NCBI RefSeq assembly: GCF_036127095.1
Contig: NZ_CP108006.1
Location: 6,935,501 to 6,999,500 of the forward strand
Length of the DNA stretch: 64,000 nucleotides
Direction of reading: 5' to 3'
Source: Streptomyces sp. NBC_00335
Lineage (GTDB): Bacteria; Actinomycetota; Actinomycetes; Streptomycetales; Streptomycetaceae
The notes under the pieces were generated by a model, which searched no databases, had not been told where the DNA came from, and saw only the letters and a program-made list of their open reading frames with translations. Below, piece after piece: positions 32,405 through 59,275 of this stretch. Numbering within the stretch: position 1 is the stretch's first letter; every line of letters begins with the position of its first letter. The translations under genes were made by a program, and so were the position numbers.

Positions 32405-32765
32405 CGGTGTTTCCCCAGATGTCGTAGAGCCGTACTTCGAGCACGGCGAGGACGACCGCTCCCGCGGCCACCGTCACCGAACCCCATTTGGTCCGCTCGC
32501 TCAGCGAGAGCAGCCCCGCGGCCGGGATGGTCGCGAAGGCGCCCACCAGATAGGCGAGGAAGAGCACCGTGCCCTGGCCGGGCTTCTCTCCCCGGGCCAG
32601 CTGGACCAGGCCGATCACCAGCTGGGCCAGGACCAGGACGGTCACCACGGCCATGCCGATGAAGTGCCAGTCCTTGGTCGGCTGGTCCCGCGAGGCGGCG
32701 AATCCGCACCAGGCGGCGAGGGCGAGTGCGGCCACGCCGATGGCGAGCGTCAGGGCGTCGAGCAT
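32397..32765 (-). CDS. Small integral membrane protein
   Basis: 122 residues with about four hydrophobic segments (LTLAIGVAALALAAWCGFAAS, FIGMAVVTVLVLAQLVIGLV, LFLAYLVGAFATIPAAGLLSL, VTVAAGAVVLAVLEVRLYDIW). No recognised domain. First gene of a two-gene unit with the 144-residue membrane protein, overlapping it by eight bases; they may form a complex. Confidence 0.85.
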   Translation of the reverse strand: MLDALTLAIGVAALALAAWCGFAASRDQPTKDWHFIGMAVVTVLVLAQLVIGLVQLARGEKPGQGTVLFLAYLVGAFATIPAAGLLSLSERTKWGSVTVAAGAVVLAVLEVRLYDIWGNTGA

Positions 32766-32832
32766 GCAGCGAGGGTATTACGGGCCGAAAGACCCGATGC
32801 GCTCACCCCTGCCCCGGGCTTTCCTTGAAAGC

Positions 32833-33522
32833 ATGAACCTGCTGCACGGGAAGCTCGGTCCGCAATTCGACGCGCTGCTGTTCGACAACGACGGCACGCT
32901 CGTCTCCTCGATGGAGTCGGTGCACCGCTGCTGGACCCGCTGGGCCCGGGAGTACGGGATCACCGAGGAGGCCTTCGCCGCGGTGGAACTCCACGGCCGC
33001 CCGGCCGTGGAGATCATCGCCGACCTCCTGCCCGAGGACGTACGGGCCGAAGCGCTCGCCCGCATCGAGGTGCTGGAGACCGAGGACGTGGCGGGCGGCG
33101 TGGTCCTGCTCCCCGGCACCAAGGAGCTGCTCTCCGCCCTGCCCGCCGGCCGCTGGGCCGTCGTCACCTCCGCGACCCGCCCGCTGGCCGAGGCCCGGCT
33201 GCGGGAGGTCGGCATCGCCGCCGGGAAGGAGGGGGGCGCGGAGCTGGTGGCCGCCGACGACATCACCCGCGGCAAGCCCGACCCGGAGCCCTTCTTGCTG
33301 GCGGCCGCCCGGCTCGGGGTGGACCCGGCACGCTGCGCGGTCTTCGAGGACGCCCCCGCCGGCCTGGCCGCGGGCCGCGCCGCCGGGATGACCACCGTGG
33401 CCTTGACCACAACGCACCCGGCCGCCGAACTCGACGCGGACGTGGTCGTACGGGACCTTTCGGCCGTGTCCGTGCTGGTCGGAGCCGATGGCCTGACGAT
33501 CGAGACGGACGATCGGCCCTGA
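32833..33522 (+). CDS. HAD-IA family phosphatase
   Basis: 229 residues. Motif I LLFDNDGTLVSS (DxDGT nucleophile), motif II VVTSATRPLAEA, motif III RGKPDPEPF and motif IV VFEDAPAGLAAGRAAGM are all intact, as in sugar-phosphate and phosphoglycolate phosphatases. Cap domain between residues about 20 and 90. ATG 32833; ATG 32797 would add 12 residues. A hairpin lies just downstream. Confidence 0.92.
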   Translation: MNLLHGKLGPQFDALLFDNDGTLVSSMESVHRCWTRWAREYGITEEAFAAVELHGRPAVEIIADLLPEDVRAEALARIEVLETEDVAGGVVLLPGTKELLSALPAGRWAVVTSATRPLAEARLREVGIAAGKEGGAELVAADDITRGKPDPEPFLLAAARLGVDPARCAVFEDAPAGLAAGRAAGMTTVALTTTHPAAELDADVVVRDLSAVSVLVGADGLTIETDDRP

Positions 33523-33550
33523 CCGGTGTTGTCCGGTATGCGGCCGAAAT

Positions 33551-33573
33551 CCGTCCGCTATTCGGACGGCTTT
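33551..33573 (+). terminator. Terminator after HAD phosphatase gene
   Basis: CCGTCCG (33551-33557), loop CTATT, CGGACGG (33563-33569), then CTTT. Lies just ahead of the leader-peptide promoter. Confidence 0.65.
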
Positions 33574-33602
33574 GATCGGTGACGGGGAACGTCTGGTTTA
33601 CT
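33572..33602 (+). promoter_or_regulatory. Candidate promoter of metNIQ leader
   Basis: TTGATC (33572-33577) and TTTACT (33597-33602), 19 bases apart; the -10 ends six bases before the leader-peptide ATG, implying a leaderless transcript. Confidence 0.35.
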
Positions 33603-33608
33603 GGGCCC

Positions 33609-33695
33609 ATGACCACGACGAGCAGCCGCACCCTTGCGACCGAGGCGACGATGACGCCCGGTGCTCGTTGTATGTGTCGAATGCGCGCCTTCTGA
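33609..33695 (+). CDS. Putative regulatory leader peptide of metNIQ
   Basis: A 28-residue reading frame, MTTTSSRTLATEATM... ending in RCMCRMRAF then TGA. The last nine residues contain two Met, two Cys and three Arg codons, a composition suited to ribosome stalling when methionine or cysteine is scarce. It sits 201 bases before the metN start, followed by an imperfect hairpin (GGTCTC 33709-33714 / GAGACC 33727-33732). Function as an attenuator is inferred from position and composition; the peptide itself probably has no other role. Confidence 0.6.
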   Translation: MTTTSSRTLATEATMTPGARCMCRMRAF

Positions 33696-33896
33696 GGGCC
33701 CCTGCCCCAGGTCTCACGCCCCGAAGCGAGACCGGCCGAGCAGCTCCCGGCACCCCCGTGTGAACCCGGAACGCTCCTGCCCCGCGCATGCGCCGAAGCC
33801 GTCGATTTCCGATGGTTCGCCCCGTATCGCGTCCCCAGATGTATGCCCCGTGCCCGGCACCCGCTGCGCCGCGCACTCGACAGCGACGGAAATCCT
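33696..33896 (+). other. Untranslated region between leader peptide and metN
   Basis: About 200 bases with a GGTCTC/GAGACC hairpin at 33709-33732 and GC-rich sequence after it. I looked for the conserved cores of SAM riboswitches and did not see them. Alternative starts for metN lie here (33843) but give an unconserved N-terminus. Confidence 0.5.
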
Positions 33897-35006
33897 GTGA
33901 TCACCACATCGGGCCTCACGAAGGTCTACCAGTCCCGTGGCCGCGAGGTCACCGCCCTGGACGGCGTCGACCTGCACGTCCGCCAGGGCGAGGTCTACGG
34001 AGTCATCGGCCAGAGCGGCGCCGGAAAGTCCTCCCTGATCCGCTGCGTGAACCTGCTGGAGCGCCCCACCACCGGCACCGTGTCCGTCGACGGGGTCGAC
34101 CTCACCGCCCTCGCCGGCCGAGGCCGCCGCGCCGGCAAGGAGCTCCGCGAGGCCCGCAGTCGCATCGGCATGGTCTTCCAGCACTTCAACCTGCTGTCCT
34201 CGCGCACCGTGCAGGGCAACGTCGAGCTGCCCCTGGAGATCCTCGGGATATCCGGCCGCGAGCGCTCCCGCAAGGCCGCCGAACTGCTCGACCTCGTCGG
34301 CCTCGCCGACAAGGCCAAGTCCTACCCCGGTCAGCTCTCCGGCGGCCAGAAGCAGCGCGTCGGCATCGCCCGCGCCCTGGCCGGCGACCCCAAGGTGCTG
34401 CTCTCCGACGAGGCCACCAGCGCTCTGGACCCCGAGACCACCCGCCAGATCCTCCAGCTGCTGCGCGACCTCAACCGCCAGCTGGGCCTGACCGTCCTGC
34501 TCATCACGCACGAGATGGACGTGGTCAAGTCCGTCTGCGACTCGGCCGCCCTCATGCGGCAGGGCCGGATCGTCGAGGCCGGCAAGGTCACCGAGCTGCT
34601 GGCCACCCCCGGCTCCGAACTCGCCCACGAACTGTTCCCGCTGACCGGTTCCGCGACCACCGCGGAGCACACGGTCATCGACGTCACCTTCCACGGCGAG
34701 ACCGCGACCCAGCCGGTCATCTCCCAGCTGGCCCGGACCTACAACATCGACATATCGATCCTCGGCGCCGCGATGGACACCGTCGCCGGCCGCCAGATCG
34801 GCCGCATGCGCATCGAACTGCCCGGCCGCTACGAGGACAACGTCGTACCCGTCGGCTTCCTGCGCGAGCAGGGCCTGCAGGTGGACGTGGTGGAAGCGGA
34901 CACGTACCCGGCCCCCTACACGGACGTGGACGTGGACGCAGACGCGGACGCGGGGACGGACGTCGACGGCGAACTGGCCGAGCTGGTCAAGGATGGTGCG
35001 AAGTGA
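33897..35006 (+). CDS. metN: Methionine ABC transporter ATP-binding protein
   Basis: 369-residue ATPase driving D/L-methionine uptake. Walker A GQSGAGKSS, Q-loop VFQHFNLLSSRTV, signature LSGGQKQRVGIARAL, Walker B VLLSDEATSALD and switch LLITHEMD are present, and the C-terminal NIL domain (HTVIDVTFHGETATQPVISQLARTYNIDISILG), which binds methionine for trans-inhibition, identifies it as MetN. An Asp-rich tail (DVDVDADADAGTDVDGE) follows. GTG 33897 chosen because VITTSGLTKVY is the conserved start. Its stop overlaps metI. Confidence 0.95.
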   Translation: MITTSGLTKVYQSRGREVTALDGVDLHVRQGEVYGVIGQSGAGKSSLIRCVNLLERPTTGTVSVDGVDLTALAGRGRRAGKELREARSRIGMVFQHFNLLSSRTVQGNVELPLEILGISGRERSRKAAELLDLVGLADKAKSYPGQLSGGQKQRVGIARALAGDPKVLLSDEATSALDPETTRQILQLLRDLNRQLGLTVLLITHEMDVVKSVCDSAALMRQGRIVEAGKVTELLATPGSELAHELFPLTGSATTAEHTVIDVTFHGETATQPVISQLARTYNIDISILGAAMDTVAGRQIGRMRIELPGRYEDNVVPVGFLREQGLQVDVVEADTYPAPYTDVDVDADADAGTDVDGELAELVKDGAK

Positions 35007-35671
35007 CCTGGTCCGAAATGCAGCCGCTGCTCACGCAGGGCACCTTCGACACCCTCTACATGGTGCTGTGGTCCGCCCTGGTGACCATCCTGGGCGGGCT
35101 GCCCATCGGCATCCTGCTCGTCCTGACCGACAAGGGCGGCCTGCTCCAGAACCGCGCGGTCAACAAGATCCTCGGCGTGATCGTGAACATGGGCCGCTCG
35201 CTGCCCTTCATCATCCTGCTGATCTTCCTGATCCCGGTCACCACGGCGATCGTCGGCACCTTCATCGGCCCCACCGCCATGATCGTCCCGCTTGCCATCG
35301 GTGCCATCCCCTTCTTCGCCCGGCTCGTCGAGACCGCCGTCCGCGAGGTGGACCACGGCCTGGTCGAAGCCGTCGAGTCCATGGGCGGCGGCATCCCGAC
35401 CCTGGTCGGCAAGGTGCTCCTCCCGCAGGCGCTGCCCTCGCTGATCGCCGCCGTCACCACCACCGTGATCACCCTGATCGGCTACTCGGCCATGGCCGGC
35501 GCGGTCGGCGGCGAGGGCCTCGGCTCCAAGGCCATCACGTACGGCTTCCAGCGCTTCGAGACCGGCTTCATGATCGCCACCGTGGTGGTGCTGATCGTGC
35601 TCGTCACGGTGATCCAGCTCATCGGCGACGGCGTGGTACGCCTCCTCGCGCGGCGCGGTCGGACAGCCTGA
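35003..35671 (+). CDS. metI: Methionine ABC transporter permease
   Basis: 222-residue permease with about five membrane helices. The EAA-type loop contacting MetN is VEAVESMGGGIPTLVGKVLLPQALPSLIAA, and TLIGYSAMAGAVGGEGLGSKAITYGFQRF is typical of MetI. GTG 35003 overlaps the metN TGA (GTGA). Confidence 0.96.
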   Translation: MTWSEMQPLLTQGTFDTLYMVLWSALVTILGGLPIGILLVLTDKGGLLQNRAVNKILGVIVNMGRSLPFIILLIFLIPVTTAIVGTFIGPTAMIVPLAIGAIPFFARLVETAVREVDHGLVEAVESMGGGIPTLVGKVLLPQALPSLIAAVTTTVITLIGYSAMAGAVGGEGLGSKAITYGFQRFETGFMIATVVVLIVLVTVIQLIGDGVVRLLARRGRTA

Positions 35672-35772: not shown

Positions 35773-36636
35773 GTGCGCAAGAACATCAAGCTCACCGCCC
35801 TCGCCGCCACCGTCTCGGCGCTCGCCCTCGGCCTCACCGCCTGCGGCAGCTCCTCGGACCCGTCCTCCACCAAGGCCGACGGCGGCAAGACCGACGAGAG
35901 CAAGCCCCTGGTCGTCGCGGCGTCCCCGTCCCCGCACGCCGACATCCTGAACTTCGTGAAGGACAAGCTGGCGGCCAAGGAAGGCCTCAAGCTGGAGGTC
36001 AAGGAGTTCACGGACTACGTCCTGCCGAACACCGCCACCCAGCAGGGCCAGGTCGACGCCAACTTCTTCCAGCACGTGCCGTACCTCGACGACTTCAACA
36101 AGAAGAACGGCACCGACATCGTGCCCGTCGTGAACGTGCACCTGGAGCCCCTGGGCCTCTACTCCAAGAAGTTCAAGGCACTCACGGACATCAAGGCCGG
36201 CCAGACCATCGCCGTCCCCAACGACCCCACCAACGAGGGCCGCGCGCTCCAGCTGCTCGCCGCGAACAACCTCATCACCCTCAAGGAGGGTGTCGGCACC
36301 GCCGCCAAGCTGTCCGACATCACCGACAAGAAGGGCCTGGAGTTCAAGGAGCTGGAGGCCGCCACGGTCCCGCGCGCCCTGAACGACGTGGACGCCGCCG
36401 TCATCAACGGCAACTACGCCATCGAGGCCAAGCTCGTCCCGGCCAAGGACGCGCTCGTCCTGGAGAAGGCCGAGGGCAACCCGTACGCCAACATCCTGGC
36501 GGTCAAGAACGGCAACCAGGACGACCCCCGGGTCCAGAAGCTCGCCAAGCTCCTGAACTCCGACGAGGTCAAGAAGTTCATCGACGAGAAGTACCAGGGC
36601 TCGGTCATCCCGGCCTTCGGCAAGCCGGCCGCCTGA
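35773..36636 (+). CDS. metQ: Methionine-binding lipoprotein
   Basis: 287-residue NlpA/MetQ-family solute-binding protein. Signal peptide KLTALAATVSALALGLTACG with lipobox LTAC, anchoring it outside the membrane. The ligand-binding core has PLVVAASPSPHADILNFVKD, LPNTATQQGQVDANFFQHVPYLDDFN and TIAVPNDPTNEGRALQLL, the family signature around the methionine site. GTG 35773 preceded by AGAAAGG. About 100 bases separate it from metI, then two hairpins close the operon. Confidence 0.96.
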   Translation: MRKNIKLTALAATVSALALGLTACGSSSDPSSTKADGGKTDESKPLVVAASPSPHADILNFVKDKLAAKEGLKLEVKEFTDYVLPNTATQQGQVDANFFQHVPYLDDFNKKNGTDIVPVVNVHLEPLGLYSKKFKALTDIKAGQTIAVPNDPTNEGRALQLLAANNLITLKEGVGTAAKLSDITDKKGLEFKELEAATVPRALNDVDAAVINGNYAIEAKLVPAKDALVLEKAEGNPYANILAVKNGNQDDPRVQKLAKLLNSDEVKKFIDEKYQGSVIPAFGKPAA

Positions 36637-49084: not shown

Positions 49085-49159
49085 TGGTGCGCGATACTGG
49101 GATTGAACCAGTGACCTCTTCCGTGTCAGGGAAGCGCTCTCCCGCTGAGCTAATCGCGC
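49085..49159 (-). tRNA. tRNA-Val (GAC), copy 1
   Basis: Minus strand. Anticodon arm CTTCC-CTGACAC-GGAAG gives GAC. Acceptor GCGCGAT/ATCGCGC, D arm TAGCTCAGCGGGAGAGC, T arm GGTTCAATCC. CCA is encoded (complement of TGG 49085-49087). Confidence 0.95.
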
Positions 49160-49213
49160 GGGACCACACTCACGGTGAGAACACCGCAGGTGGCAAGTGT
49201 GAAGCGTACTGCG

Positions 49214-49285
49214 TGCGCGATACTGGGATTGAACCAGTGACCTCTTCCGTGTCAGGGAAGCGCTCTCCCGCTGAGCTAATCGCGC
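49214..49285 (-). tRNA. tRNA-Val (GAC), copy 2
   Basis: Same sequence as copy 1 throughout the body, 72 nt, same acceptor GCGCGAT; CCA not encoded. Confidence 0.95.
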
Positions 49286-49304
49286 GGGGATCCTTGCGGA
49301 TCAG

Positions 49305-49376
49305 TGGACGATACTGGGATTGAACCAGTGACCTCTTCCGTGTCAGGGAAGCGCTCTCCCGCTGAGCTAATCGTCC
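49305..49376 (-). tRNA. tRNA-Val (GAC), copy 3
   Basis: Body identical to the others but acceptor stem GGACGAT/ATCGTCC. CCA not encoded. Its 5' end is one base from the encoded CCA end of tRNA-Cys. Confidence 0.95.
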
Positions 49377-49377
49377 T

Positions 49378-49451
49378 TGGAGGTGGAGACGGGATTTGAA
49401 CCCGTGTAGACGGCTTTGCAGGCCGTTGCCTCGCCTCTCGGCCACTCCACC
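49378..49451 (-). tRNA. tRNA-Cys (GCA)
   Basis: Minus strand. Anticodon loop CTGCAAA gives GCA; acceptor GGTGGAG/CTCCACC with the U73 discriminator typical of tRNA-Cys; CCA encoded at 49378-49380. Confidence 0.95.
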
Positions 49452-49496
49452 ATGGAGCAAGCAGGGGGTCCTCGGGAAGATGATCCCCCACCTTAG

Positions 49497-49569
<73 letters not shown>

Positions 49570-55975: not shown

Positions 55976-56047
55976 GGGCGATTAGCTCAGTGGGAGAGCA
56001 CTTCGTTCACACCGAAGGGGTCACTGGTTCGAACCCAGTATCGCCCA
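55976..56047 (+). tRNA. tRNA-Val (CAC), copy 1
   Basis: Plus strand, 72 nt. Anticodon stem-loop CTTCG-TTCACAC-CGAAG gives CAC. Acceptor GGGCGAT/ATCGCCC. CCA not encoded. A very strong terminator follows. Confidence 0.96.
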
Positions 56048-59203: not shown

Positions 59204-59275
59204 GGGCGATTAGCTCAGCGGGAGAGCACTTCGTTCACACCGAAGGGGTCACTGGTTCGATCCCAGTATCGCCCA
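59204..59275 (+). tRNA. tRNA-Val (CAC), copy 2
   Basis: Differs from copy 1 at two positions (C for T in the D arm and T for A in the T loop). Same anticodon CAC and acceptor stem; CCA not encoded. Confidence 0.96.

What the first reader, a model, noticed from the sequence alone, without database searches (positions are those of the whole stretch)
33609..33896. Met/Cys/Arg-rich 28-residue leader peptide in front of metNIQ
A short frame ending RCMCRMRAF precedes the methionine transporter, from what looks like a leaderless promoter, with a hairpin before metN. This suggests translation-coupled attenuation that senses methionine or cysteine supply, rather than the SAM riboswitch used in Firmicutes. 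I know of no experimental description of it for this operon.
Basis: partly seen in the sequence, partly recalled or inferred. Interest (0 to 1): 0.7.

Follow-up and report, generated by a model that had tools for sequence, protein, structure and literature searches.

The report
Structured leader peptide before methionine transporter
The 28-residue leader peptide in front of the Streptomyces methionine-uptake genes is real and already reported in one species; comparing many genomes shows that it sits inside a conserved folded RNA and nearly always keeps one arginine-methionine codon pair, which points to a methionine-sensing gene switch whose workings are still untested.

Summary
The small frame (33609-33695) is real and conserved. 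All 140 Streptomyces metN loci with enough upstream sequence have a -10 box, an ATG 6-7 nt after it and a short frame before metN. In sister genera and part of a second family it recurs with another N-terminus. The last codons read CGA-AUG (Arg-Met) in 181 of 186 leaders, CGC-AUG in 4; the ATG-to-CGN-ATG distance is a multiple of 3 in 185 of 185, so it is probably translated.

'No experimental description' is wrong: the S. lividans leader ('metL', leaderless start from RNA-seq, termination 'unclear') is in PMC8079986.

New here: the frame lies in a covarying RNA. P1-P3 form a three-way junction inside the frame; a GAGGG motif at the stop codon co-occurs with hairpin P4; P5 stands before the metN start. 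No intrinsic terminator and no Rfam match.

Methionine fits better than cysteine: the codon after Met is Arg in 37 of 185.

Best reading: a ribosome-mediated, methionine-responsive attenuator with an unusual structured leader, acting through Rho or metN translation. Sensing and output are inferred. New variant of a known kind.

The parts
33597..33602 (+). -10 box TTTACT of a leaderless-type promoter
   Evidence: TTTACT in 135, TTAACT in 3, TTTAAT in 2 of 140 Streptomyces loci; gap to ATG 6 nt (69 loci) or 7 nt (71)
33609..33695 (+). leader ORF, 28 codons, ends RCMCRMRAF-stop; ortholog of S. lividans metL
   Evidence: PMC8079986
33615..33623 (+). 5' strand of RNA helix P1 (codons 3-5)
   Evidence: covariation
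33663..33671 (+). 3' strand of RNA helix P1 (codons 19-21)
   Evidence: covariation
33627..33638 (+). hairpin P2 (33627-33630 with 33635-33638); the weakest of the helices
   Evidence: 90.2% of cells paired; 78.7%
33640..33661 (+). hairpin P3 (33640-33642 and 33644-33647 with 33655-33661)
   Evidence: searches (99.5%; 99.2% of cells paired), with double changes
33678..33683 (+). near-invariant CGA-AUG codon pair (Arg-Met), proposed sensing site
   Evidence: CGA-AUG 181, CGC-AUG 4, absent 1 of 186
33694..33699 (+). GAGGGC motif overlapping the TGA stop codon
   Evidence: co-occurs with P4: both 171, GAGGG only 4, P4 only 0, neither 11 of 186
33713..33730 (+). hairpin P4 (33713-33717 with 33726-33730), loop GCCCCGAA at 33718-33725; one A-C mismatch (33716/33727) in this genome
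33731..33849 (+). C-rich linker, possible Rho-loading region
   Evidence: mean C 45.5%, G 28.2%, C>G in 171 of 171 loci with P4; here C 41.5%, G 28.0% over 33735-33852
33850..33876 (+). hairpin P5 (33850-33853, 33855-33858 with 33868-33871, 33873-33876) before the metN start
   Evidence: covariation
33877..33896 (+). near-invariant block around TCGACAG-GACGGAAA before the metN start (ribosome-binding region)
33897..35006 (+). metN (GTG start)
   Evidence: best model ABC_MetN, 380.7 bits, cut-off 499.7
35003..35671 (+). metI
   Evidence: best model MetI, 203.5 bits, cut-off 212
35773..36636 (+). metQ
   Evidence: best model MetQ, 187.3 bits, cut-off 374

Best explanation
It is a cis-acting attenuator of metNIQ. 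The mRNA starts at or next to the AUG of a 26-37-codon leader that ribosomes translate without a Shine-Dalgarno site. Reading is slow at a rare CGA codon followed by AUG; when charged Met-tRNA is short the ribosome waits there, its front edge just short of GAGGG at the stop codon. The waiting ribosome keeps P1 open and leaves GAGGG free to pair with the P4 loop (GGG with CCC), a state that allows transcription or translation to go on into metN. When methionine is ample the ribosome reaches the stop codon, covers GAGGG and leaves; P1 can close over the leader start, and the C-rich RNA is open to Rho, or metN initiation behind P5 is disfavoured. Shown: conserved promoter, frame, Arg-Met codons, RNA helices, GAGGG/P4 co-occurrence; leaderless start in S. 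lividans (published). Inferred: translation in vivo, pausing at AUG, the GAGGG-P4 contact, the direction of the switch, Rho versus translational output.
For: Frame kept: nine different ATG-to-CGN-ATG distances (66-96 nt), 185 of 185 divisible by 3 (the search ran to the end of the ORF plus 15 nt), and a 1-nt insertion at the stop turns CTGAGGG into CTAGAGGG with a stop at the same codon (TAGAGGG in 53 of 175 loci with GAGGG). Arg-Met near-invariant, followed by 3 (170) or 2 (15) residues and the stop. Operon for methionine uptake. RNA: P1-P4 in 28 diverse Streptomyces, 94.3% of cells paired, 18 double-change cells against 3.2 in shuffles, 0/500; P1-P3 in 34 sequences of the family, 90.0%, 37 against 11.8, 0/500; P5 19 against 4.6, 0/500. 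Excess synonymous conservation: 1.89 bits at fourfold-type sites against 1.27 in metN, p 1.1e-5. GAGGG/P4 co-occurrence. No intrinsic terminator but a C-rich linker. One strong copy in its own genome, before metN. Of 7 Streptomyces genomes without a metN match of ortholog grade, 4 have no element at E<=0.1, 2 only weak hits (E 0.019-0.058, not confirmed) and 1 (G001, fragmented) has it.
Against: Usually one or two Met codons near the end, not a run. No measurement of response to methionine. The excess conservation is at nucleotide level, so it cannot tell codon sensing from an RNA function of CGAAUG. 'Further pair types' does not exceed the shuffles for P1-P4 (201/500) or P1-P3 (126/500); P2 is weak. 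15 of 186 leaders lack a recognised P4, 11 of them GAGGG too. GAGGG and the P4 loop are too constant to covary. C>G in the linker was compared only with tiles of this mostly coding window (40 of 6386 reach it), and this genome's own linker does not reach the C threshold. In S. coelicolor the operon rises under oxidative stress in a HbpS-SenS-SenR-dependent way (PMC4991794, passages), so other control exists.
Confidence: 0.55

Rival explanations
1. Cysteine-responsive leaderless attenuator, as described for mycobacterial polycysteine leaders: the ribosome stalls at the Cys codons of RCMCRMC.
For: Every one of 186 leaders has at least one Cys in its last nine residues; Cys23 is TGT/TGC in 104 of 111 28-codon leaders.
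Against: No polycysteine run in most; the codon after Arg-Met is Arg in 37 and His in 2 of 185; Cys21 is Arg (CGC-type) in 10 of 111; the operon imports methionine by annotation.
Confidence: 0.12
2. Riboswitch-like element: P1-P3 bind a metabolite (methionine, SAM or a relative) and close the 5' end, blocking leaderless initiation; the ORF is the expression platform.
For: Three-way junction with covariation whose P1 begins 6 nt from the AUG; strong nucleotide conservation of the junction in Streptomyces.
Against: P1-P3 sequence is not kept in the g127 and second-family leaders, where folds suggest only a similar long stem; no Rfam aptamer; unpaired nucleotides of P2 and P3 loops vary.
Confidence: 0.12
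3. Arrest peptide: the nascent chain ending Arg-Met-Cys stalls the ribosome by contact with the tunnel or a small molecule.
For: Arg-Met in 185 of 186 at nearly fixed distance from the stop.
Against: Residues before Arg-Met differ between groups (MC, CC, CR, RR, PL and others), distance to stop varies by one, and codon 24 is conserved as CGA, not as any Arg codon.
Confidence: 0.08
4. Not a sensor: a structured, translated leader that sets stability or a fixed expression level of the mRNA.
For: No regulatory data; conservation alone does not prove switching.
Against: A structured RNA with a kept reading frame confined to one transport operon is what attenuators look like; near-invariant Met codon.
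Confidence: 0.13

Closest known systems
metL leader of Streptomyces lividans TK24 (PMC8079986)
   Same: Same operon, same peptide family (MSTTSDRTPATEATTTPGARCMCRRMCAF; the identical peptide is in L049 and L051), leaderless start from RNA-seq, no typical Rho-independent terminator.
   Different: The paper gives one species, marks several methionines and threonines, and calls termination unclear; the passages and the section part that I saw give no conserved structure, no comparative analysis and no GAGGG/P4/P5 elements.
Polycysteine leaderless sORF attenuators of mycobacteria (Canestrari et al. 2020; not held, title seen in a reference list)
   Same: Leaderless short ORF before a sulfur amino acid operon; proposed ribosome-mediated attenuation.
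   Different: Here no polycysteine tract, a conserved Arg-Met pair and a conserved RNA junction inside the ORF.
uORF attenuators such as ilvB-II of Corynebacterium (PMC10272879, abstract) and ilvB1 of M. tuberculosis (PMC13236596, passages)
   Same: Short ORF with codons of the relevant amino acid before the operon; RNA motif that overlaps a uORF.
   Different: Those have an intrinsic terminator/antiterminator pair; none found here.
Streptomyces-metK and Streptomyces-metH RNAs (RF03063, RF03076)
   Same: Streptomyces cis-RNAs of methionine genes, both present in this genome.
   Different: No shared GAGGG, P4 loop or CGAATG motif at those loci; no match of any Rfam family at this leader.

Membership tests
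S. lividans metL leader | leaderless-type ORF of this sequence directly upstream of metNIQ | tested here: met
   sequence and position; identical S. lividans peptide in L049 and L051. The start site itself was mapped in S. lividans, not here
Ribosome-mediated amino acid attenuator | short ORF before the operon, reading frame under selection | tested here: met
   185 of 185 distances divisible by 3
Ribosome-mediated amino acid attenuator | conserved codons for the amino acid of the operon | tested here: met
   Met of Arg-Met in 185 of 186, but not a run of Met codons
Ribosome-mediated amino acid attenuator | mutually exclusive terminator and antiterminator | tested here: not met
   no intrinsic terminator in 33500-33960; a Rho-dependent or translational form is not excluded
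Ribosome-mediated amino acid attenuator | expression responds to the charged tRNA | not testable with these tools
   needs reporter or starvation experiment
Polycysteine leaderless attenuator | run of Cys codons near the stop | tested here: not met
   window leader has C-M-C then R-M-R; codon after Met is Arg in 37 of 185; CC occurs in some genera only
SAM riboswitches and other Rfam families | match to a covariance model | tested here: not met
   no match up to E 5 in 33500-33960; whole window only tRNAs at gathering scores
Streptomyces-metK / -metH RNA | match to RF03063 / RF03076 | tested here: not met
   the matches in this genome lie at other loci
Riboswitch | ligand binding by the RNA | not testable with these tools
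   needs in-line probing or ITC

The most novel reading that the evidence does not exclude
A distinct class of actinobacterial regulator: a leaderless ORF folded into a conserved RNA whose three-way junction gates initiation at the very 5' end and whose single CGA-AUG pause decides whether GAGGG at the stop codon docks into the P4 loop, so that one methionine codon drives an RNA tertiary switch without an intrinsic terminator.
Probability: 0.2. Interest if true: 0.75.

Novelty: new variant of a known kind. Interest (0 to 1): 0.5.

Why it matters
It turns a one-species prediction into an element found in every assessable Streptomyces metN locus examined (140 of 140), with defined, mutable parts. 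It makes testable how high-GC actinobacteria without visible terminators run amino acid attenuation, whether one methionine codon after a slow codon suffices as a sensor, and how an RNA can be constrained as structure and as code at once on a leaderless transcript.

Tried and rejected
Long-range pairing of the leader (TGTCGA...) with TCGACA before metN: clear complementarity in Streptomyces (mean -18.5 against -13.9 kcal/mol shuffled; z -2.1, first 60 of 140 loci) but own and swapped partners score alike (-18.5 both), there is none in the other genera (z -0.2), and several leaders that lost TGTCGA keep TCGACA (and by eye): not supported. Pairing of the RBS strand with the leader as mutually exclusive partner of P5: same problem. 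CUGAGGG with CCCGAAG over its full length: the TAGAGGG form (53 loci) breaks the outer pairs; only GGG with CCC, or GGGC/GGGU with GCCC, remains common. Extended coding start of metN (ATG at 33843): upstream lengths before the GTG vary by single bases between loci, so the conserved block is not coding. Second copies in the same genome: one further hit at E 2.2, taken as chance. Kinship with the metK/metH RNAs: no shared motif. Weak model hits L173, L215 and L259 were read and show no leader. RNAalifold on the full MAFFT alignment was uninformative because of gaps.

Selections: A1 holds 28 of 30 representatives (90% identity) of 133 loci, L047 and L063 left out for odd inserts; A2 holds 34 sequences picked by me, without the 15 g127-type leaders (A3), whose P1-P3 were not tested by covariation; A4 (P5) holds 30 loci picked by me after I had looked at folds of every third row, several of them known to vary, so its covariation is a favourable sample; A5 holds 35 picked loci, all with P4.

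Full report
What is there. The frame at 33609-33695 encodes MTTTSSRTLATEATMTPGARCMCRMRAF. TTTACT ends 6 nt before its ATG. metN begins at the GTG at 33897, then metI (35003) and metQ (35773); NCBIfam's best models agree with these names, though all three scores lie below the curated cut-offs. The pattern scan found neither a sigma-70 consensus promoter nor an intrinsic terminator in 33500-33960; Rfam gave nothing in that stretch up to E 5.

Prior art. PMC8079986 (passages; section 14 part 1 of 2) lists metL of S. lividans TK24 before metNIQ, 29 residues, leaderless by RNA-seq, termination unclear, no typical Rho-independent terminator. In the held library I found no RNA motif for it: searches with metN and leader peptide, SCO1557-1559, methionine transporter and attenuation, Streptomyces-metK/metH, metN motif and the like, uORF and leaderless in Streptomyces; listings only, save for the papers named. 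Passages of PMC11109978 and PMC8632094 show no occurrence of metN in the main texts; their supplements were not available. PMC1262725 (section 0, part 1 of 3) reports Cys leaders in other actinobacteria and, in that part, none for methionine.

Conservation in Streptomyces. Of 150 genomes, 143 have a metN ortholog. 142 upstream regions were fetched; 140 have TT[TA]A[CA]T, 6-7 nt, ATG and the frame; two (L127, L141) are cut by contig ends. G050 has no sequence upstream. Lengths are 28 codons in 111 and 29-37 in 29.

Other genera. Model R1, built from 28 Streptomyces sequences, matched 82 of 121 genomes of the family at E<=0.1: 28 Streptomyces and 54 others, 13 of 17 genera in all. I fetched 46 of the 54 (L174-L219; the eight weakest were not fetched); 45 of 46 show TT[TA]ACT, a leader frame and metN, L215 does not. 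39 genomes gave no match, and whether they hold metN was not tested. In the class, R1 matched 30 of 296 (28 Streptomyces, G382, G241) and the core model R2 (built from A5) 52 of 394: 39 Streptomyces, three strong hits in family f17 (E 1e-12 or better) and ten weak ones between 8e-4 and 9e-3 that I did not follow; one Streptomyces, G543, had none. Within f17, 9 of 150 genomes matched at E<=0.001: eight are real by reading (seven, L233), each with a leaderless-type frame ending in Arg-Met-Cys plus two residues (GC, DR, AF, GR, AC, SH); a metN-like reading frame follows on the same strand; L259 is not an element. So the element is general in Streptomyces, common in its family and patchy beyond.

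Code. Over 186 leaders (140 Streptomyces, 45 of the family, L172 of f17) Arg-Met occurs in the last six residues of 185; Arg is CGA in 181 and CGC in 4; the next codon is TGC 82, TGT 64, CGC 37, CAC 2. L133 alone lacks it. The distance from ATG to the last CGN-ATG takes nine values, all multiples of 3, in 185 of 185. Indels between codon 21 and the Arg-Met, some of which repeat Met-Cys-Arg units (for example L196, L200), keep the frame.

RNA. In the 111 leaders of 28 codons the third positions are nearly as fixed as the rest, with codons such as GGT, GCT, CGT, TGT and CGA kept. At conserved fourfold-type codons the third position carries 1.89 bits (13 codons) against 1.27 in the first 50 codons of metN (28 codons), p 1.1e-5; for all conserved codons 1.89 (16) against 1.39 (39), p 9.9e-5. 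The window's leader folds into P1 (codons 3-5 with 19-21), P2 and P3. On A1 (P1-P4): 94.3% of cells paired against 91.9% shuffled and at most 44.7% when slid; 8 pairs and 18 cells with double changes against 2.6 and 3.2; 'further pair types' not above shuffles (201/500). On A2 (P1-P3, 34 sequences of the family): 90.0% against 86.0%, at most 41.6% slid; 37 cells against 11.8; further types 126/500; one P1 pair is A-U in 15 and G-C in 15 sequences. P5: 92.9% paired, 19 double-change cells against 4.6, covariation 0.292 against 0.133; slid by -2 it still pairs 64.2%. The shuffles do not correct for relatedness. In leaders of the g127 type and L172 the sequence of P1-P3 is different; single-sequence folds show a long stem between codons 3-6 or so and the segment just before Arg-Met, which is suggestive only.

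GAGGG and P4. Hairpin P4 has a near-invariant loop (CTCGC GCCCCGAA GCGAG in most). GAGGG and P4 are both present in 171 of 186, GAGGG alone in 4, P4 alone in 0, neither in 11 (Fisher 8e-15, not corrected for relatedness; the losses are clustered). GAGGG stays where the ORF ends earlier (L182, L186, L188), so it is not kept merely as a stop codon. Duplex energies for GAGGGC with the P4 loop are -7.6 (CTGAGGGC) and -7.2 kcal/mol (TAGAGGGC), -4.5 for the degenerate CTGAGGC. A contact is my inference.

How it may work. The Arg-Met AUG is 33681-33683 and GAGGG begins at 33694. With AUG in the A site the ribosome's leading edge would lie near 33693-33695 (footprint sizes recalled; PMC13236596, passages, uses 26 nt centred on the codon), so a pause would leave most of GAGGG free, while a ribosome at the stop codon would cover it. 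This geometry, the lack of an intrinsic terminator and the C-rich linker (C 45.5%, G 28.2% on average, C>G in 171 of 171) suggest a Rho- or translation-based output. The tile control is weak: it used this mostly coding window, where 40 of 6386 tiles reach both means, and the window's own linker has C 41.5%. P5 sits directly before the metN ribosome site and could serve a translational output.

Regulation known from papers. In S. coelicolor SCO1557-1559 rose 2.3-5.2 fold under oxidative stress in an RNA-seq study of HbpS-SenS-SenR (PMC4991794, passages); SCO1557 was activated by salt (PMC13011467, passage). I found no study of methionine response in the searches named above.

Specificity. R1 finds one strong copy in this genome, before metN. 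Among 7 Streptomyces genomes without a metN match of ortholog grade, G022, G078, G109 and G144 have no R2 match at E<=0.1, G044 and G111 have weak ones (0.019-0.058; not read), and G001 has a clear element near a contig end, its metN presumably unassembled.

Verdict. Observation confirmed; partly published; interpretation plausible and sharpened toward methionine; new is the conserved structured RNA around and after the frame. The mechanism is unproven.

Noticed in passing
33875-33896 and equivalents: A block ACTCGACAGTGACGGAAACCC before the metN start is near-invariant in Streptomyces and part of its family; P5 explains only its first letters. Function unknown.
   Followed up: partly
L196, L200, L036, L054 leaders: Inserts before the final Arg-Met often repeat Met-Cys-Arg-like units (MCRMCHMCRMC in L200), as if the sensing codons expand by slippage.
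   Followed up: no
family f17: L233, L252-L258: The element occurs in 8 of 150 genomes of a second actinobacterial family, in 3 genera; transfer or wide loss is possible.
   Followed up: partly
L187, L189-L194, L197, L200: One group of a sister genus kept the leader frame but has no P4 loop; most of these have a changed GAGGG motif too: a natural set to test whether regulation differs.
   Followed up: no
window 32569-33522, + strand: Frame upstream of the leader contains LLFDNDGTL, which looks like a HAD-type hydrolase (recalled motif); start uncertain.
   Followed up: no
window 49088-49569 (-), 55976-56047 (+), 59204-59275 (+): Seven tRNA genes, five of them clustered on the minus strand.
   Followed up: no
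L220-L222: PMC8079986 lists RF03063 as metH and RF03076 as metK RNA; the Rfam copy here names them the other way round.
   Followed up: no
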